Positions 1 through 33,254 of a DNA stretch of 36,199 bases are shown piece after piece. Source of the DNA: Paracoccaceae bacterium (GTDB taxonomy: Bacteria > Pseudomonadota > Alphaproteobacteria > Rhodobacterales > Rhodobacteraceae); contig SKMI01000240.1 in the NCBI GenBank assembly GCA_007121115.1, positions 1 to 36,199 on the forward strand, read 5' to 3'. The notes under the pieces were generated by a model. That model was not told the origin of the DNA. It did no database searches and saw nothing but the letters and a program-made list of their open reading frames with translations. The position numbers were made by a program, and so were the translations under genes. Position 1 is the first letter of the stretch. Every line of letters starts with the position of its first letter.

Positions 1-639
1 CGATCTGCCATCCGGCCAGCGTGATCGTCCCGGCGCTGAACTCATGCGTCAGCAGCGTGGGGATATCGGTGGTGCCCGCGTCCACATACATGGCGATCAT
101 CGCCACCAGCATCAGCACCGAGCCGAGGAAGGTGTAGAGGAAGAACTTGAAGGCCGCGTAGATGCGCTCCTTGCCGCCCCAGATGCCGATGATCAGGAAC
201 ATCGGGATCAGACCGGCCTCGAAGAACAGGTAGAACAGCACCAGGTCCAGCGCCGTGAAGACGCCGATCATCAGCGTTTCCAGCACCAGGAATGCGATCA
301 TGTATTCCTTGACGCGGGTGGTGACGTTCCAGCACGCGGCAATGGTGATCGGCATCAGGAAGGTCGTGAGCATCACGAACAGGATCGAGATGCCGTCCAC
401 CCCCATCTTGTAGGTGAGCCCGAGGATCCACTCGCGCTCCTCGACGAACTGGAACCCGGTGTCCTGCGGATCAAACCCGAAGAGCAGGATCAGCGAGAAC
501 AGGAAGGTCGCCACCGTGGCGATGAAGGCCAGCCACTTGGCGTTGTTGTCCGTGGCTTCGTCATTCCCGCGCAGGAAAAACGCCATGATGGCGGCGGCAA
601 GCAGCGGCGTGAAGGTGATGATGGACAGCAGGTTCAGCA

Positions 640-640
<1 letters not shown>
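1..640 (-). CDS. nuoM: NADH-quinone oxidoreductase subunit M (5' part only)
   Basis: Antiporter-like proton-pumping membrane subunit of respiratory complex I. The window holds only the first 213 codons, and the frame runs off the left edge, which is why the ORF track lacks it. The protein begins [20 protein letters not shown] and shows several hydrophobic helices, including the NuoM-like stretch [22 protein letters not shown] full NuoM is about 500 residues, so more than half lies outside the window. The start is set by a stop-start overlap with nuoL: the sequence reads TGATG, sharing one A. This coupling and the same strand place it as the next gene of the nuo operon. Identity is clear from sequence and position. 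Confidence 0.95.
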
Positions 641-2616
<1,976 letters not shown>

Positions 2617-2620
2617 GTCC

Positions 2621-2926
2621 TCAGCCCCTCATCACGTTTACGTCTTCGACGTCGATGGTGCCCCGGGTGCGGAAGAAACAGACCAGGATCGCCAGCCCGA
2701 TCGCGGCCTCGGCCGCTGCGACGGTCAGGACGAACATGGTGAACACCTGCCCCACCAGATCACCGAGGAAGGACGAGAACGCCACCAGGTTGATGTTGAC
2801 CGACAGCAGCATCAACTCGATCGACATCAGGATGACGATGATGTTCTTGCGGTTCAGGAAGATCCCGAAGATGCCGATGACGAACAGCGCCGCCGCCACC
2901 GTCAGGTAGTGTTCAAGTCCAACCAT
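2621..2926 (-). CDS. nuoK: NADH-quinone oxidoreductase subunit K
   Basis: Small membrane subunit of complex I, homologous to MrpC and mitochondrial ND4L, part of the proton path between NuoJ and NuoN. The 101-residue product is the usual length and has three membrane helices. The second carries the conserved acidic motif [15 protein letters not shown], and the third carries [16 protein letters not shown] with its conserved glutamate. The start MVGLEHYL is preceded by GGAGG six bases upstream. It sits 4 nt before nuoL and 78 nt after nuoJ. The 78-nt gap is one of the larger gaps in the operon and shows no gene. Confidence 0.97.
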
Positions 2927-3004
2927 CTGGTCCCTCCGGGTTCTGACGACCCGTCCCTTGTCTTTGCATTTGGCGAAGCGGATGCGCCCGCGTCGCCATA
3001 CCCC

Positions 3005-3619
3005 TCACAGCCCCTGGCCGGGCTTCACGTCCTTCAGTTCCATCGCCTTGGCCGGGTCGCGGTGCATCTGGGCCACCACGTCCTGGCGCTTGACGTTCTC
3101 GCGCTTGCGCAGCGTCAGCAGGATCGCGCCGATCATCGCCACCAGCAGGATCAGACCGGAAAGCTGGAACAGGATGAAATACTGATCATACAGGATCAGA
3201 CCCAGCGCCTTGGTGTTGTGCACCTCGTCCAGGTCCGGGGTGACCGCCTGGCGCAGCCCCAGCGCACCCTCGGCCTGCGCCCAGCTTCCGTAAAGCAGCG
3301 CAAGCTGCATCAGCAGCACCAGCCCCACAAGGCTGGCGATGGGGAAATACCGCGCCATCTCGCCCTTCAGCGCGGCGAAATCGATGTCCAGCATCATCAC
3401 CACGAACAGGAACAGCACCGCCACCGCGCCGACATAGACGATGATCAAGAGCATCGCCATGAACTCGGCGCCCAGCAGCACGAACATCCCCGCCGCCGAC
3501 AGGAAGCACAGGATCAGCCACAGCACCGAATGTACCGGGTTGCGCGCCGTGACCACCAGAAGCGCCGCCGTCACGATGACGATGGCAAAGGCATAGAATG
3601 TGAAATCGGCGATGCCCAT
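3005..3619 (-). CDS. nuoJ: NADH-quinone oxidoreductase subunit J
   Basis: Membrane subunit J (ND6 homologue) of complex I. The ORF track frame begins at 3853, but its first 78 residues overlap nuoI and look like out-of-frame translation. The family start is [23 protein letters not shown], so I place the start at 3619, behind GGAG. That gives 204 residues with five predicted membrane helices. The conserved third helix reads [22 protein letters not shown], the region that becomes a pi-bulge in known structures. The C-terminus is polar (REKVKRQ-like, ending PGQGL). It lies 47 nt after nuoI and in the standard order I-J-K. Confidence 0.95.
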
Positions 3620-3666
3620 TGTGCTCCGATGTCCTTCCTGTCGCTTGCATGCGCGGTCCTGACCGC

Positions 3667-4161
<495 letters not shown>

Positions 4162-4389
4162 TCAAACCTCCAGTTTCGCTTCCAGATGCTCGACGCGTTT
4201 GTCGATCTGTCCGATGACCGAACTCAGGCCGAAGATCATCATTCGGTGGCCCTGCAATTCGGTTTCGATATCGTCGAAGCGTGTCTCCATGCGTGTTTCC
4301 AGCGATTTCAAACTGCCGCGCACCTCACCAAGGTCCTCGCGGATCAGCCGCAGTTGCTCCAACACGATGTTGTCCACGCTCTCGCCCAT
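4162..4389 (-). CDS. Small coiled-coil protein encoded between nuoH and nuoI
   Basis: A 75-residue soluble protein that I cannot assign to a characterised family. It begins MGESVDNIVLEQLRLIREDLGEV and is almost entirely amphipathic helix with hydrophobic residues in heptad-like spacing (LRLIREDLGEVRGSLKSLETRM, then IGQIDKRVEHLEAKLEV). This predicts a coiled coil, probably a homo-oligomer. There is no signal peptide and no clear membrane helix, though MMIFGLSSVIG in the middle is moderately hydrophobic. Its ATG lies 1 nt after the nuoH stop and its stop lies 3 nt before nuoI, so translation is tightly coupled to complex I subunits. Unidentified frames are known in Rhodobacter capsulatus and Paracoccus complex I clusters. 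A role in complex I is inference from position only. Confidence 0.8.
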   Translation of the reverse strand: MGESVDNIVLEQLRLIREDLGEVRGSLKSLETRMETRFDDIETELQGHRMMIFGLSSVIGQIDKRVEHLEAKLEV

Positions 4390-4390
4390 C

Positions 4391-5428
4391 TCAGCCCCCC
4401 ACGGCCCAGCGGGCCCAGAAGCCGCCCGCGACCTCGAACTTGGCGAGGAAGGCCACCACCACCACCCAGGCCAGCGACAGCGGCAGGAACACCTTCCAGC
4501 CGATCCGCATCAACTGGTCGTAGCGGTAGCGCGGCGTGATCGCCTTGATCATGGCGAAGAGGAAGAAGAAGAACGCCATCTTCGCCACCATCCAGAAGGC
4601 GCCATCGGGCAGCCCCGGGATGGGCGACAGCCAGCCGCCGAAGAACAGCAGCGAAATCAGCGCGCACATCAGGAAGATGGCGATGTATTCCCCCGCCATG
4701 AACAGCAGGTAGGGCGTCGATGAATACTCCACCATGAACCCGGCCACGAGTTCGGATTCGGCCTCGGGCAGGTCGAAGGGCGGTCGGTTGGTTTCCGCCA
4801 GACAACTGACGAAGAACAGCACCACCATGGGCAGATGCGGCAGCCAGTACCAGCCCAGCACGCCCCAGCCCGTGTCCTGCGAGGCGACGATCTGGCCCAG
4901 GTTCATGCTGCCGGCCGAGATGATCACACCGATGATGATCAGGCCGAGCGAGACCTCGTAGCTGATCATCTGCGCGGCGGACCGGAGCGAGCCGAGGAAC
5001 GCATATTTTGAATTCGACGCCCAGCCGCCCATGATCACGCCGTAGACCTCGAGCGAGGAGACGGCAAAGACGAACAGGATCGCCACGTTGATGTCGGTCA
5101 GCACCCAGCGCTCGTTGAACGGGATCACCGACCAGGCCAGCATCGCCAGCACGAAGGACAGAAGCGGCGCCAGGAAGAACACCGGCCGGTCTACCCCTGC
5201 CGGGATCACCACTTCCTTGACCACGAATTTCAGCGCATCCGCCACGGTCTGCAACAGCCCCCAGGGGCCGACCACATTGGGCCCGCGCCGCATCTGGACC
5301 GCCGCCCAGACCTTGCGGTCGCCATAGACGAGGAACAGGAGCGAAATCATCACGAAACCGACCACCAGCAGCGATTGCGCCACGATCAGGAGCGTGATGC
5401 CGAGGCCCGTTTCCAGAAATGCGTCCAT
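4391..5428 (-). CDS. nuoH: NADH-quinone oxidoreductase subunit H
   Basis: Membrane subunit H (ND1 homologue), which helps form the quinone-binding chamber and links the peripheral arm to the proton-pumping arm. The 345-residue product is typical in length and has about eight membrane helices. It shows the family motifs [27 protein letters not shown] near residue 35 and [29 protein letters not shown] near residue 210; the second is the acidic E-channel loop. The start [14 protein letters not shown] lies 27 nt after the lipoprotein gene, with GGGA seven bases upstream. The stop is followed after 1 nt by the coiled-coil gene. Confidence 0.97.
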
Positions 5429-5455
5429 CTTCGTGTCCCGTCGCTCAGACCGCCC

Positions 5456-5863
5456 TCAGACGGTCGGTATGTTCTGTTCCTCGCAATCCGCGACGACCAC
5501 CTCGGAATCGATGGTGCGCAGGCCGCGCGGCAAAGCAGGCGAAATGGTGTAAACAGCATCCGCGCGCGAGATTCCACCCTCACGCGTCACATTCGTGCGC
5601 AAATGCCGGGCAAACCCGTAGCCGCGGATCAGCGCATACTGGGCCGCCGCACAGCGGGCATAGGCGATCACGTCCGCCTCATCGCGCGCGCCGCGCATGG
5701 CAACGCGGAAATTGACCAGGTCACTGTCCATCATGCGGGTCTCCACCCCCAGATACTCCGGCGCAAAGCGCCGCTCGCTGGCGTCCTGCGTGCCTGCACA
5801 GCCCATCAGACCGACCAGCCCGGCCAGGCCAGCGGCGCGCAGGCCGGACATGATGACCGCCAT
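5456..5863 (-). CDS. Putative lipoprotein encoded between nuoG and nuoH
   Basis: A small protein of 135 residues (131 from the second ATG at 5851) with no family I can name securely. The N-terminus MSGLRAAGLAGLVGLMGCAG is a lipoprotein signal with lipobox LMGC, so the mature protein should be lipid-anchored on the periplasmic side. The mature part has a conserved-looking core, YALIRGYGFARHLRTN, and two further cysteines (one in ARCAAAQ, one in VADCEEQ) that could form a disulfide. The first ATG follows the nuoG stop directly (TGAATG) with GGAG just upstream. The second ATG, four codons later, gives a cleaner signal peptide. Its place in the operon suggests a link to complex I or its membrane environment, which is inference. 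Confidence 0.82.
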   Translation of the reverse strand: MAVIMSGLRAAGLAGLVGLMGCAGTQDASERRFAPEYLGVETRMMDSDLVNFRVAMRGARDEADVIAYARCAAAQYALIRGYGFARHLRTNVTREGGISRADAVYTISPALPRGLRTIDSEVVVADCEEQNIPTV

Positions 5864-7873
5864 TCACTCCGCCGCCAGCGGCGCGTTGCGCCGTGCCTTG
5901 GCCTGCGCGGCCAGTTCCCCCATCAGCTTCGAAGCGCGCGCGATCGGGTTCGTCAGGTAGAAATCCGTGACCGCATAACCGAAATCCCCTGACTCGGGGC
6001 GCTTGAGCGGCAGGGGCTGCCAGCCATTCTCTGGCAAGAGGTCGATATCGCCCAGGTGCGGCACCGCCTCGGCCATGGCGCGGCGCAGTTGCGGGACGCT
6101 GTCGAAGGGCAGCGTGGCGCCCAGTTCGGCCGAGAGCGCGCGCAGGATGGCCCAGTTTTCGCGCGCATCGCCCGGCGGGAAACCGGCGCGCAGCGCAACC
6201 TGCGGGCGCCCTTCGGTGTTGACGAAGATGCCCGGCTCCTCGGTCCAGGCGGCGGCGGGCAGGATCACATCGGCCCGGTGCGCGCCCCGGTCGCCATGGC
6301 TGCCCTGATAGATCACGAACGGTCCGGCGGGGATGTCGATCTCGTCGGCGCCGAGGTTGTAGATCACCTTGGCCCCCAGCGCGGCATCGATCCCGCCCTC
6401 GGTCACGCAGCCCAGATCCATCGCGCCCACGCGCGCAATCGCCGTGTGCAGGACCAGAAGCCCCGCGCCGGTCTTTTCGGCCAGCGCCATGGCCTGGGCG
6501 AGCACCGCCTCGCCATCCGCGCCCGTCAGCGCACCCTGCCCCACGATCACCACGCCCGGCGCGTCCGAGGCTTCGGCCTTCTTCACCAGGCCGAACAGCG
6601 CATCTGCGCCGGTTCCGGCCTCGATCACGTCATAGGTCAGGTCCACCGGCGCGCCGACGCGGGTCACATCGGCCCCCGCCAGCCACGCCTTGCGGATGCG
6701 CGCGTTCAGCACCGGCGCCTCGGCGCGCGGGTTGGTGCCGATCAGCCAGACGTGGCGGGCGTGGTCGATATCCTCGATCGCTGCGGTGCCGACATAGGCG
6801 GAACGGTTGCCCGCAGGCAGCTTCGCACCATCGGTGCGGCATTCCACCGTCCCGCCCTGCCCTTCGATCAGGGTTTTCAGCGCGAACGCGGCCTCGGCCG
6901 GGGCCAGATCGCCCACCAGCCCGCTGACCTTCTTGCCCGCCATGGCATCCTTGACGGCGGCAAAGGCTTCGCCCCAGGTCGCTGGCGTCAACTTCCCGTC
7001 CTTGCGCACATACGGCCGGTCCAGCCGCTGGCGGCGCAGCCCGTCCCAGACAAAGCGGGTCTTGTCGCTTATCCACTCCTCGTTCACGCCGTGATTCTCG
7101 CGCGGCAGGATGCGCATCACCTCGCGCCCCTTGGTGTCCACGCGGATGTTGGAGCCGAGCGCGTCCATCACGTCCACGGTCTCGGTCTTGGTCAGCTCCC
7201 ACGGGCGGGCGGTGAAGGCATAGGGTTTGGAGACCAGCGCCCCCACCGGGCACAGGTCGATGATGTTGCCCTGCAACTCGCTGTCGATCAGCGCGCCCAG
7301 ATAGGTGGTGATCTCGGCATCTTCGCCGCGCCCGGTCTGGCCCATCACGCTGACGCCCGAGACCTCGGTGGTGAAGCGCACGCAGCGGGTGCAGGAAATG
7401 CAGCGCGTCATGTGGGTTTCGACCAGCGGGCCCAGGTCCAGATCCTCCACCGCGCGCTTGGGCTCGCGGTAGCGCGAGAAATCCACGCCATAAGCCATGG
7501 CCTGATCCTGCAGGTCGCATTCGCCGCCCTGATCGCAGATCGGGCAGTCGAGGGGATGGTTGATCAGCAGGAACTCCATCACGCCCTCGCGGGCCTTGCG
7601 GACCATGGGGCTGTTGGTGCGGATCACCGGCGGCGCGCCTTCAGGGCCGGGGCGCAGGTCCTTGACCTGCATCGCACACGAGGCGGCGGGTTTCGGCGGG
7701 CCGCCGACAACCTCGACCAGGCACATCCGGCAATTGCCCGCGATCGACAGGCGCTCATGATAGCAGAAGCGCGGAATCTCGATCCCCACCTCCTCGCAGG
7801 CCTGAATCAGCGTCATCGCCGGCGGGACCTCGATCTCGCGGTCGTCGATGATGATCTTGCGCAATTCGGACAT
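5864..7873 (-). CDS. nuoG: NADH-quinone oxidoreductase subunit G
   Basis: Largest peripheral-arm subunit of complex I, carrying several iron-sulfur clusters on a molybdopterin-oxidoreductase-like scaffold that no longer binds molybdenum. In the 669-residue product I see the [2Fe-2S] N1b ligands Cys37, Cys48, Cys51 and Cys66, the His-ligated N5 motif [14 protein letters not shown] (His106, Cys110, 113, 119), and N4 with CISCTRC plus CPVG (Cys158, 161, 164, 208). The extra N7 cysteines of E. coli-type NuoG are not apparent, as is usual in alphaproteobacteria and mitochondria. The rest is the degenerate oxidoreductase domain. AAGG precedes the start [11 protein letters not shown]. It lies 3 nt after the DUF5333-like gene. 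Confidence 0.97.
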
Positions 7874-17384: not shown

Positions 17385-17459
17385 GCTGCGGTAGCTCAGT
17401 GGTAGAGCACACCCTTGGTAAGGGTGAGGCCGAGAGTTCGATCCTCTCTCGCAGCACCA
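17385..17459 (+). tRNA. tRNA-Thr (anticodon GGT)
   Basis: A complete 75-nt cloverleaf with encoded CCA. The acceptor stem is GCTGCGG/TCGCAGC with one G-T pair at its base. The D arm is GCTC-AGTGGTA-GAGC, the anticodon arm CACCC-TTGGTAA-GGGTG with anticodon GGT (reads ACC and ACT), and the T arm GAGAG-TTCGATC-CTCTC, followed by discriminator A and CCA. All stems are paired. It stands alone, divergent from the murA unit. The minus-strand ORFs across it are antisense translations. Confidence 0.97.
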
Positions 17460-26436: not shown

Positions 26437-26485
26437 AAAAGCGCCCCCGAGGCGCGCAGGGTGGGTGGGCGCGGCTTGGGGGCGC
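26437..26485 (-). terminator. Rho-independent terminator after the GntR gene
   Basis: On the minus strand, GCGCCCCC pairs perfectly with GGGGGCGC around a long GC-rich loop that can form further pairs, followed at once by TTTTCC. It lies 14 nt after the GntR stop and about 130 nt before ccmF, which isolates ccmF from this regulator. The remaining part of the 191-nt gap has no supported gene. Confidence 0.7.
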
Positions 26486-26499
26486 TTCTGGCGATCCCG

Positions 26500-27153
26500 C
26501 TACAGCCCCGCGCGCTGCGCGCTCATGCTGTCAAGCTTCAGCCGCGTCTCGAAGGCGCGCGAGATGTGGTCCTTCAGCGCCTGATACGCGGCTTCGCCAT
26601 CGCCTGCGGCAATCGCCTCGGTGATGGCGCTGTGTTCGGCCACGGTCTCGCTCGGCCGTCCCTCTGCGGCGATCGAGGTGCTGGCCAGCAGCGCCATGGA
26701 GCGGTGCACCAGATCCAGTTGCTGGACCAGATAGCGGTTGTGCGAGGCCAGGTGGATCTGCTTGTGAAACCGGCGGTTGGCGCGGCTCATGGCCTCGGGG
26801 TCGTCCAGCAGGCGGCGATCCTCCTCGACCATCCCGCGCAGCACGCGCACCTCCTCGGCCGTGGCATGCCGCGCCGCCAGCCGCGCCGCCAACCCTTCCA
26901 GTTCCGCACGCACCACATAAAGCTCCGCCAACTGGTTGTGATCCAGCGAGGCGACAATCAGCGACCGCCCGTCCCGGGTCAGCAGCGACTGCGTTTCCAG
27001 CCGCTGCAACGCCTCGCGGATCGGCGTGCGCGACACGCCGAAGCGTTCCGCAAGTTCCGATTCCACCAGCCGCGCGCCGGGCTTGTAGATGCCCACGTCA
27101 ATGGCATCGAGGATCAGCGAATAGGCGTCGGTCTGGGTCTTGATGTCGCTCAT
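26500..27153 (-). CDS. GntR family regulator, FCD subfamily (first copy)
   Basis: DNA-binding transcription regulator. The ORF track frame adds 19 codons; I start at MSDIKTQTDAYSLILDAIDVG (27153), behind AGGGG, giving 217 residues. The winged helix-turn-helix lies at about 10-75, with the recognition part VESELAERFGVSRTPIREALQRLETQ. The C-terminal FCD ligand domain carries its usual metal-binding-type residues in NRRFHKQIHLASHN, EHSAITEAI and DHISRAFE. FCD regulators mostly sense small organic acids. The effector here is unknown. It is divergent from the nucleotidase gene across 113 nt, and followed by a terminator, so it is a single-gene unit. Confidence 0.92.
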   Translation of the reverse strand: MSDIKTQTDAYSLILDAIDVGIYKPGARLVESELAERFGVSRTPIREALQRLETQSLLTRDGRSLIVASLDHNQLAELYVVRAELEGLAARLAARHATAEEVRVLRGMVEEDRRLLDDPEAMSRANRRFHKQIHLASHNRYLVQQLDLVHRSMALLASTSIAAEGRPSETVAEHSAITEAIAAGDGEAAYQALKDHISRAFETRLKLDSMSAQRAGL

Positions 27154-27230
27154 GGCACCCCTGCGGCTGACTTCAGCGCCACAATGCCCCGCGCAGCCGC
27201 ACAGGTGCAAGCATCAAGATGCGCGCGCGG

Positions 27231-31029: not shown

Positions 31030-31200
31030 TCAACCTTCAGTTGCTTTGGTTACGGCACAGTTAACGACAGCCGCCCCGGGGTTGATCATGGCTTTCAATA
31101 ATTAAACGCCATTAAGCATTGCGTTCGGTGGCGTTGGGGCCTGCGCAACACCGGCATGGTTCATGGCAGACTACTCTCTTCCAGGTTGAAGGAGAGACAG
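31030..31200. promoter_or_regulatory. Divergent control region of the DUF6456/DUF6477 pair
   Basis: A 171-nt gap between two outward-facing genes. It is the most AT-rich part of its surroundings (TTCAATAATTAAACGCCATTAAGC). It contains the direct repeat ATTAA-ACGCC-ATTAA and a separate GTTAACG; the repeat resembles a CtrA site but with 6 nt between TTAA words, not 7. Promoters must lie here, but I found no convincing -35/-10 pair for either gene. Confidence 0.4.
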
Positions 31201-31623
31201 ATGCACCACCCGGTTTCCGTCATTCACGCCCTGCGCCGCCCGCAGCTTCTGGTCACTGCGGCGCGGTTTGCCCTGGCTGAATACCGTCGCGAGGTGTCGC
31301 TTCGCCTGGCCCTGCGCGGTCACATTGACGGCGCGCTGCCCGGCCCGGCGGCGGCGCTGGACCTGCTGCTGGAGATCGAGGCCGGGCTGGAAGCGCTGCG
31401 CCAGCGCCGCGATGCCGCCTGGCGCCCGGCGCGGCATGTCATGGTGCTGGGCGCGGTCATGGCCGAAGCGCGGCTGGTCGATGCCGCCGCCCGTGCGGTG
31501 GCGTTGGCGCAGGTGGATACGGAACCCGGCGAAAGGCGTGTCACGGCGCGGGCGCATCCGGTCGTCACGCCGAGCGGCGCAGGCCCGGCTTGCCCGCAGA
31601 TCACCCCGGTTGCAGCACCGTGA
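31201..31623 (+). CDS. DUF6477-like small protein
   Basis: A 140-residue soluble protein starting MHHPVSVIHALRRPQLLVTAARFALAEYRREVSLRLAL; AAGGAGAG lies four bases before the ATG (the ORF track starts 15 codons earlier). The core is helical and arginine-rich, with LDLLLEIEAGLEALRQRRDAAWRPARHVMVLGAVMAEARL. The last 30 residues are proline/alanine-rich and probably disordered. It fits my recollection of DUF6477, a Rhodobacterales family found next to DUF6456 genes; function unknown. The divergent arrangement suggests that the two are functionally or regulatorily linked. Confidence 0.8.
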   Translation: MHHPVSVIHALRRPQLLVTAARFALAEYRREVSLRLALRGHIDGALPGPAAALDLLLEIEAGLEALRQRRDAAWRPARHVMVLGAVMAEARLVDAAARAVALAQVDTEPGERRVTARAHPVVTPSGAGPACPQITPVAAP

Positions 31624-31662
31624 GCAAGCGGATTTTGTCCATCCCCCGGCCAGATTGCGCCC

Positions 31663-31728
31663 ACACCAAACCGCCCCCGGGGCGTGCAGGGGTGGGTGGG
31701 TGGGCACGGCCCGGGGGCGGTTTGGTGT
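31663..31728. terminator. 25-bp inverted repeat with a G-quadruplex loop
   Basis: Left arm ACACCAAACCGCCCCCGGGGCGTGC (31663-31687) and right arm GCACGGCCCGGGGGCGGTTTGGTGT (31704-31728) pair over 25 bp with a single G-G mismatch. The 16-nt loop plus one arm base is GGGGTGGGTGGGTGGG on the plus strand. It sits between the convergent DUF6477-like and aminotransferase genes. The AAACC...GGTTT flanks around a GC-rich core resemble a bidirectional intrinsic terminator, although U-tracts are short. The rest of the 161-nt gap has no gene. Confidence 0.8.
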
Positions 31729-31784
31729 AGGCTCCGGACCGAACGGGTGCACGCCTACTCAGGCGCCAGGAACCCGACTCCCCG

Positions 31785-33194
31785 TCAGGCCGCCGCCTGC
31801 ATCAACCCGCGTTCGCTCAGGATGTCGTGCGTCTCGTCCAGCGCCTTGCGCGCGCGGGACACCACCTCATCCAGATCGGCGGGGGTGATCACCAGCGGCG
31901 GGGCGATGATCATGCGGTCGGCGACATGGCGCATGACCAGGTTGTTGGCAAAACACCGCTCGCGGCAGATATACCCCACCGTCCCGGGGTCCGAGGCAAA
32001 GCGCGCCCGCGCCGCCTTGTCCGGGGTCAGCGCGATCGAGGCCATGAGCCCGCGACTCACCGCCTCGCCCACCAGCGGATGATCGGCGAGCCCCGCCCAG
32101 ACCTGCGCCAGATAGGGCGCGGTATGGTCGCGCACCCGCTCGACGATTCCTTCTTCCTCGATGATACGCAGGTTTTCCAGCGCCACGGCGGCGGCTACCG
32201 GATGGCCGGAATAGGTGTATCCGTGGTTGAACTCGTCCCCGGCGATGACCTCGGCCACTTCGTCGCAGACGATGGAACCACCGATGGGTGCGTAGCCGGA
32301 ACTTAGACCCTTGGCGATGGTCATGATATGCGGCTGGATTCCGTAGGACTGGCTGCCGAACCAGTGGCCCAGCCGTCCGAAGCCGGTGATCACCTCGTCA
32401 GCGATCAGCAGGATGTCGTGCTCGGCGCAGATGCGCTTGATCTCGGGCCAGTAGCTTTCCGGCGGAATGATCACCCCGCCCGCGCCCTGCACCGGCTCGG
32501 CGATGAAGGCGGCGACCTTGTCCGCGCCCAGCTCCGCGATCTTCGCCTCCAGTTGCCGCGCGCGTTCGATGCCGAACGCCTCCGGCGTCATGTCGCCGCC
32601 CTCCAGGAACCAGTTCGGCTGGTCGATATGCACGATGCCCGGGATCGGCATTCCCCCTTGCGCGTGCATCGCCGCCATCCCGCCGAGCGAGGCGCTGCCC
32701 ATGCTGGAGCCGTGATAGGCGTTGCGCCGGGCGATGATGACCTGCTTTTCCGGCTGGCCCTTGCGCGCCCAGTAGTGGCGCACCATGCGGATGTTGGTGT
32801 CATTCGCCTCGGACCCGCCCGAGGCGAAGAAGACGTGGTTCAGATCCCCGGGCGCCAGCGCCGCCAGCTTCTCGGCCAGCGCGATGGCGGGAACGTGGCT
32901 GGTCTGGAAGAAGGTGTTGTAATAGGGCAATTCGCGCATCTGCCGGGCGGCCACATCGGCGAGTTCGTGGCGGCCGTAGCCGATGTTGACGCACCACAGC
33001 CCGGACATCCCGTCGATCAGTTCCACCCCGTCGCTGTCTGTCAGGCGCACGCCCTCGGCCCGCGTGATGATCCGCGCGCCCTTCTCGGCCAGTTCGCCGT
33101 TGGCGGTGAACGGGTGCATGTGATGCGCCGCGTCGCGGGCCTGCAACTCGGCGGTGGGCGGGTGGTTGGCGATGGGGGCGGCAAGGCTGGACAT
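31785..33194 (-). CDS. Class III omega-aminotransferase
   Basis: PLP enzyme that moves an amino group from an omega-amino acid or amine, often to pyruvate. The product is 469 residues from the ATG at 33194 (MSSLAAPIANHPPTAELQ) with GGAG eight bases upstream; the ORF track starts at a TTG two codons earlier. Seen are LIDGMSGLWCVNIGYGRHELADVA, FFASGGSEANDTNIRMVRHYW, RNAYHGSSMGSASLGG, the DEVITGFGRLGHWFG aspartate segment and the PLP lysine in TIAKGLSSGYAPIGG. This fits the putrescine/beta-alanine/taurine-pyruvate aminotransferase group; substrate cannot be fixed from sequence. The upstream palindrome and nearby GntR gene suggest regulated catabolism. Confidence 0.9.
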   Translation of the reverse strand: MSSLAAPIANHPPTAELQARDAAHHMHPFTANGELAEKGARIITRAEGVRLTDSDGVELIDGMSGLWCVNIGYGRHELADVAARQMRELPYYNTFFQTSHVPAIALAEKLAALAPGDLNHVFFASGGSEANDTNIRMVRHYWARKGQPEKQVIIARRNAYHGSSMGSASLGGMAAMHAQGGMPIPGIVHIDQPNWFLEGGDMTPEAFGIERARQLEAKIAELGADKVAAFIAEPVQGAGGVIIPPESYWPEIKRICAEHDILLIADEVITGFGRLGHWFGSQSYGIQPHIMTIAKGLSSGYAPIGGSIVCDEVAEVIAGDEFNHGYTYSGHPVAAAVALENLRIIEEEGIVERVRDHTAPYLAQVWAGLADHPLVGEAVSRGLMASIALTPDKAARARFASDPGTVGYICRERCFANNLVMRHVADRMIIAPPLVITPADLDEVVSRARKALDETHDILSERGLMQAAA

Positions 33195-33254
33195 GGGCAA
33201 GGCTCCGCAATTGGGATCAGGCAGCGAACCGGCGCGCGGATCACTTTGGCCCGA

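What the first reader, a model, noticed from the sequence alone, without database searches (positions are those of the whole stretch)
31663..31728. Hairpin of 25 bp with a four-tract G-quadruplex loop
GGGGTGGGTGGGTGGG in the loop of a nearly perfect 25-bp inverted repeat is a striking composite. It may form a quadruplex on the plus strand (and an i-motif on the other), with a stable hairpin on both. Between convergent genes it could act as a bidirectional terminator with an added road-block, as a mutation hot spot, or as a binding site for a structure-recognising protein. The arms alone exceed what a terminator needs.
Basis: partly seen in the sequence, partly recalled or inferred. Interest (0 to 1): 0.6.

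Follow-up and report, generated by a model that had tools for sequence, protein, structure and literature searches.

The report
C-tract-loop hairpin at gene 3' ends
The hairpin is real and belongs to a so far undescribed class of gene-end hairpins in one bacterial family (Rhodobacteraceae), whose stems differ from genus to genus but whose loop nearly always keeps four runs of three C's in the messenger RNA (four runs of G on the opposite DNA strand), which suggests a special way of ending or protecting transcripts.

Summary
In detail: a 29-nt inverted repeat (27 pairs) encloses AGGGGTGGGTGGGTGG between two convergent genes. It is the strongest hairpin in the window. It is not a one-off. The genome has more than 25 copies, and all five genomes of the genus have them (one is Rhabdonatronobacter sediminivivens). 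It sits at the same site, between the same two genes, in two related species, with compensatory stem changes in one. An arm-only search returns the four-tract loop in 47 of 49 places in one complete genome. The loop recurs in about 20 other Rhodobacteraceae genera on unrelated arms. It was not found outside the family, apart from one chance-level match.

The new point is polarity. Hairpins lie just after stop codons with the C-rich strand as mRNA (tandem gene pairs 70:9), so the G-rich strand is the template. No U-tract follows in either direction. Most genus copies carry a second hairpin right after the first; the window copy has a longer stem instead.

Best reading: a Rhodobacteraceae-specific mRNA 3'-end element working in the C-rich sense. 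Whether the loop acts as template-strand quadruplex or as C-rich RNA is open. 'Bidirectional intrinsic terminator' is not supported.

The parts
31659..31687 (.). left arm of the hairpin (29 nt)
   Evidence: 27 of 29 pairs with 31704-31732
31688..31703 (.). loop AGGGGTGGGTGGGTGG on +; CCACCCACCCACCCCT on - (mRNA sense of the aminotransferase). With the closing G at 31704 the G array is GGGGTGGGTGGGTGGG, 31689-31704
   Evidence: sequence and fold; four-tract loop kept in 47 of 49 arm-only matches in G001
31704..31732 (.). right arm of the hairpin (29 nt)
26440..26487 (-). second, shorter member of the same family in the window (three C3 tracts in the loop), 12 nt from the end of the - strand gene 26500-27210; element given in the C-rich sense
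   Evidence: profile match 5.6e-8; gene context
31785..33200 (-). class-III aminotransferase; its stop is 52 nt from the hairpin and its mRNA would carry the C-rich loop
   Evidence: NCBIfam NF005682 and Pfam PF00202; distance
31156..31623 (+). DUF6477 gene, convergent neighbour; its stop is 35 nt from the hairpin and its mRNA would carry the G-rich loop
   Evidence: Pfam PF20083; distance

Best explanation
The hairpin is one member of a Rhodobacteraceae-specific class of mRNA 3'-end elements: a strong GC-rich hairpin close behind a stop codon whose loop, read in the mRNA sense, is (CCC R)3 CCC (R mostly A). In the window it would end the transcript of the - strand aminotransferase and, because the site is convergent, it also lies at the end of the DUF6477 transcript. 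Shown by sequence: the class, its position, stem conservation by compensation, loop conservation, strand polarity, absence of a U-tract, a second adjacent hairpin in most copies of the genus. Inferred: as RNA polymerase leaves the gene, the long RNA hairpin folds and the transcript end is formed or protected there without a U-tract. The strict four-tract loop adds a sequence- or structure-specific step: either the G-rich template strand folding into a parallel quadruplex that holds the polymerase (about 0.35), or the C-tract RNA loop being bound by a C-preferring factor such as Rho or a KH-type protein (about 0.3); neither is tested. In each lineage one or a few arm sequences have spread to many gene ends by an unknown copying process.
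For: Dispersed copies in all five genomes of the genus. Stem: 94.6% of cells paired, 11 of 16 pairs with double changes, 0 of 500 shuffles as high. Same site between the same two genes in G001 and G004, long stem with compensated changes in G004. Loop kept when only arms are searched: 47 of 49 places in G001; 56 of 72 genus copies with four tracts and 1-nt spacers, 8 more with four tracts otherwise spaced. Unrelated arms around the same loop in about 20 other genera: 66 of 92 (C3D)3C3 places are hairpin loops against 3.9% for shuffled flanks, 58 of 64 behind a gene read in the C sense, median 7 nt from stop codon to stem. Tandem polarity 17:3, 19:3, 34:3, combined 70:9, p 8e-13. Further set chosen by the general model: 16 of 20. 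Convergent sites enriched, 43 of 67 against 22 of 179 other gaps. Canonical short-loop U-tract terminators occur at other gene ends of the same genomes, so this is a separate kind.
Against: No transcript-end data exist here; no termination or protection is shown. Near-identical copies within a genome prove copying, so position could partly reflect where such repeats are tolerated. About one in ten tandem copies has the opposite polarity. Some copies have three tracts or fewer (8 of 72). The second hairpin is missing in the window copy.
Confidence: 0.55

Rival explanations
1. A selfish or neutral dispersed repeat (REP- or MITE-like) that inserts or survives best at gene 3' ends; the loop is kept because it is what the copying machinery recognises.
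For: Many near-identical copies within a genome; palindromic, extragenic, 50-60 bp; each genus tends to have its own arm family.
Against: No Y1/RAYT-type transposase (PF01797) in three genus genomes. The loop is shared by many genera while arms are unrelated, and hairpins lie in one polarity a few nt after stop codons. Compensated stem changes at an orthologous site.
Confidence: 0.25
2. A bidirectional intrinsic (Rho-independent) terminator whose G-rich loop is incidental.
For: Strong hairpin between convergent genes; A and T bases flank the core on the two sides in many copies.
Against: T-runs are 2-4 nt and often paired; only 2 of 66 family hairpins have 4 or more T in the 6 nt after the stem, in either sense. 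The one terminator-like match at the site is a 5-pair sub-hairpin. Across genera the loop is the conserved part and the arms are free. Tandem polarity 70:9.
Confidence: 0.1
3. A DNA-level structure (cruciform tipped by a G-quadruplex and an i-motif) that acts on replication, recombination or nucleoid proteins rather than on transcripts.
For: Four G3 tracts with 1-nt T or C spacers, a known stable parallel quadruplex design; (G3T)4 is a proven quadruplex former (PMC7023247). Assembly breaks at several copies show that the DNA is hard to sequence or assemble.
Against: Tight coupling to stop codons and to one transcription sense is not expected for a replication or recombination site. In the common orientation, transcription of (G3T) repeats did not form a quadruplex (PMC7023247). 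Positive supercoiling between convergent genes should disfavour extrusion (general knowledge).
Confidence: 0.1

Closest known systems
Clusters of hairpins proposed as intrinsic terminators without U-tract (PMC8355165)
   Same: One or two adjacent hairpins within about 80 nt of the stop codon, no poly-U needed
   Different: Those hairpins are predicted one by one and have no conserved loop; here a four-tract C loop is conserved across genera
Quadruplex-forming GGGNATC repeats of Xanthomonas and Nostoc (PMC4692102)
   Same: Many intergenic quadruplex-capable sites, preference for four G-tracts, close to gene ends with a strand preference
   Different: Tandem 7-nt units without a hairpin; downstream of ORFs they favour the coding (G-sense) strand, the opposite of what is seen here
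PIT / intrastrand triplex motifs of E. coli (PMC4666352)
   Same: Dispersed G/C-rich intergenic motif with non-B potential
   Different: Needs a homopurine stem and a third strand outside the hairpin; here the repeat is inside the loop. PIT motifs showed no terminator activity
REP elements / BIMEs
   Same: Palindromic, extragenic, many copies, enriched at gene 3' ends and convergent gaps
   Different: No RAYT (PF01797) gene found in three genomes; loop rather than stem foot conserved
Canonical intrinsic terminators of the same genomes
   Same: GC hairpin after the stop codon
   Different: Those have 3-6 nt loops and U-tracts

Membership tests
Intrinsic (Rho-independent) terminator | GC-rich hairpin shortly after a stop codon | tested here: met
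   52 nt and 35 nt from the two stops; median 7 nt to stem base in the family set
Intrinsic (Rho-independent) terminator | U-tract directly after the stem | tested here: not met
   2 of 66 family hairpins; genus T-runs of 2-4 nt only
Intrinsic (Rho-independent) terminator | causes transcript release | not testable with these tools
   needs Term-seq or in vitro transcription
G-quadruplex motif (G3N1-7)x4 | four G3 tracts with short spacers | tested here: met
   31689-31704, only such motif on + in the window
G-quadruplex motif (G3N1-7)x4 | folds into a quadruplex in this hairpin context | not testable with these tools
   needs CD, footprinting; (G3T)4 alone does (PMC7023247)
REP element / REPtron | extragenic palindrome in many copies | tested here: met
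REP element / REPtron | RAYT (Y1 transposase) in the genome | tested here: not met
   PF01797 absent in G000, G001, G004; control rings in 5 of 14 genomes
GGGNATC quadruplex repeats | tandem 7-nt units | tested here: not met
   spacing is 4 nt (GGGT)
Known Rfam family | match above gathering score | tested here: not met
   only a tRNA in the window; nothing credible at the site
Rho-dependent terminator (rut site) | C-rich, G-poor unstructured RNA of about 70-80 nt before the 3' end | not tested
   the C-rich loop is only about 16 nt; needs Rho assays

The most novel reading that the evidence does not exclude
A further route to transcript ends in Rhodobacteraceae: a hairpin whose loop is a near-obligate four-tract (CCCR)3CCC array, used in one direction, where a template-strand quadruplex or a C-tract-binding factor takes the place of the U-tract of intrinsic terminators.
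Probability: 0.3. Interest if true: 0.85.

Novelty: new variant of a known kind. Interest (0 to 1): 0.62.

Why it matters
Gene-end signals without U-tracts are poorly understood in GC-rich bacteria. Here is a natural, repeated, strand-polar element with many instances across one bacterial family, in which the stem is free to change but the loop is not. It gives a clean test of whether a quadruplex-capable or C-tract loop takes part in ending or protecting transcripts, and in which direction. It may also explain assembly breaks in these genomes.

Tried and rejected
Rfam match: none. RAYT/REP transposition: no PF01797. Plain intrinsic terminator: no U-tract. A purely genus-specific repeat: rejected, because the same loop occurs on unrelated arms in about 20 other genera. 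Wider spread: class-wide and phylum-wide searches with the general model found it only in Rhodobacteraceae apart from one chance-level match. Simple count of C3 arrays as a marker: spoiled by poly-C runs in some assemblies, so repeated with C excluded from the spacers. Literature searches found no description of this element.

Full report
Observation. The inverted repeat is real: arms 31659-31687 and 31704-31732, 27 of 29 pairs, 16 nt between them. The four-tract G array GGGGTGGGTGGGTGGG is at 31689-31704. Folding energies are far below shuffles on both strands. It is the best hairpin in the window, and the only other independent one above the same threshold is a second member of the same family at 26440-26487. 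Neighbours: a DUF6477 gene ending 35 nt to its left on + and a class-III aminotransferase ending 52 nt to its right on -, so the pair is convergent.

A dispersed family. A BLAST search of the own genome (361 contigs, 87% complete) found about 16 further places besides the site itself, and a consensus query and a covariance model added more, to over 25. All five genomes of the genus carry it, while BLAST found none in 36 genomes of other genera. Contig names show that one of the five is Rhabdonatronobacter sediminivivens IM2376 and that copies also occur in contigs labelled Natronohydrobacter, Roseibaca, Pararhodobacter and several unnamed Rhodobacteraceae assemblies. The core in the C-rich sense is AAGCGCC..CGRGCCGYG-CCCACCCACCCRCCC-(T)GYRCGCC..GGCGCT. 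Stem pairs change in a compensated way: 94.6% paired, 11 of 16 pairs with double changes, 0 of 500 shuffles as high.

The loop is part of the element. A pattern that fixed only the outer arms and left 14-40 free bases between them returned 49 listed palindromic places in G001 against 0-1 for the reversed control; by my count 47 have four C3 tracts and 2 have three. Of 72 genus copies 56 have four C3 tracts with 1-nt spacers and 8 more have four tracts otherwise spaced. Spacers in the C sense are A, then G, rarely T, that is T or C on the G strand, the spacers that suit parallel quadruplexes (general knowledge). A first-order random 4 Mb sequence of the same composition had 5 such arrays against 128 in G001.

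Same site in relatives. Between the same two genes, G001 has the short-stem form and G004 a long-stem form whose arms differ from the window's by compensated changes. The G004 loop reads as C10, but that assembly is full of poly-C runs, so the loop there cannot be trusted. G003 has only 78 nt between the genes and no element was found; in G002 the two genes are not neighbours. Other loci share flanking genes and element across species.

Position and polarity. In the genus set 43 of 67 copies are convergent against 22 of 179 other gaps; in the named-contig set, after removing duplicates, 45 of 71 against 42 of 346. In tandem gene pairs, where direction can be read, the upstream gene's mRNA carries the C-rich loop in 17 of 20 and 19 of 22 cases. 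In convergent pairs the C-sense gene is usually the nearer one (37:6 and 33:12). So the G-rich strand is the template of the gene the element belongs to. In the window distance does not decide (DUF6477 is slightly nearer), so assigning the element to the aminotransferase rests on the class polarity.

A second hairpin. In most genus copies a second hairpin of variable sequence starts at once after the first in the C sense: 60% against 5% for shuffled flanks and 7% on the other side; 38% in the named-contig set; 64 different sequences. The window copy lacks it and has a longer first stem instead. T-runs beside the stem are 2-4 nt on both sides; there is no real U-tract.

Family-wide class. A covariance model of the genus element also hit other Rhodobacteraceae genera. 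Reading those hits, and about 80 further (C3D)3C3 places chosen only for the C array, showed hairpins with unrelated, often perfect arms around the same loop. Of 92 such places 66 are hairpin loops, against 3.9% after shuffling the flanks; 58 of 64 with a known upstream gene have it in the C sense; tandem pairs 34:3; none lies inside a predicted gene; median 7 nt from stop codon to stem. A general model (13 bp stem, 15-nt loop; the 29 training sequences were picked for good stems, so its pair counts are not independent evidence) was run over 385 genomes drawn across the class and 399 drawn across the phylum. All clear matches are Rhodobacteraceae; one chance-level hit fell outside. Twenty of the family matches gave 16 upstream genes in the C sense and show that some genera have their own repeated arm family. 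The own genome also has such hairpins with other arms. Canonical short-loop terminators with U-tracts sit at other gene ends of the same genomes.

Mechanism. Shown: a gene-end hairpin, polar, with a constrained loop and free arms. Inferred: it forms or protects transcript ends in the C sense. Two readings of the loop remain. Template-strand quadruplex: explains exactly four tracts of three and the spacer choice, and fits the polarity if it stops the polymerase. C-tract RNA: explains why the array is in the mRNA and could suit Rho or a KH-type protein. In a published test (G3T)4 formed a quadruplex during transcription only when the RNA was G-rich, and (G3T)8 was about 350 times more unstable in that orientation (PMC7023247). 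The orientation seen here is the quiet one; that weighs against a transcription-driven quadruplex, and the bias could even arise because G-sense copies are lost. Hairpin clusters without U-tracts have been proposed as terminators elsewhere (PMC8355165).

Limits. Gene calls come from a simple codon-usage caller written here, not from a standard annotator. Genome searches score only about 16-22 candidates per genome, so copy numbers are lower bounds, and searches over many genomes used stricter filters. The (C3D)3C3 set excludes C spacers by design. Shared ancestry was not corrected for, but the polarity holds in most genera taken singly. Several assemblies are metagenome bins.

Noticed in passing
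G000 contigs C29, C97, C194, C332 (copies at contig ends); G004 loci L065, L067, L075: Several copies lie at contig ends, and in G004 some are flanked by long poly-G or poly-C runs, which suggests assembly breaks and sequencing artefacts at these hairpins.
   Followed up: partly
L280-L288 (genome G235): Nine (C3D)3C3 arrays are not enclosed in a hairpin but mostly lie in the mRNA sense after stop codons, several directly before another hairpin; the C array in the mRNA may matter more than the enclosing stem.
   Followed up: no
G253 contig C258 (L224, L225): All model hits of this genome are on one 71,974-base contig, the length of JAFIEC010000418.1; the contig may be a mis-binned piece of a relative of the window's genus.
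   Followed up: no
L337-L353 (genomes G943, G965, one genus): This genus has its own dispersed arm family (GCGTGGCGGAACG-loop-CGTTCCGCCACGC) around the same loop, a second independent repeat family of the same design.
   Followed up: partly
window 1-6000: GC content is about 6 points lower than in most of the window (about 0.63 versus 0.69); cause not examined.
   Followed up: no
window 17385-17456: A tRNA gene, the only Rfam match in the window.
   Followed up: no
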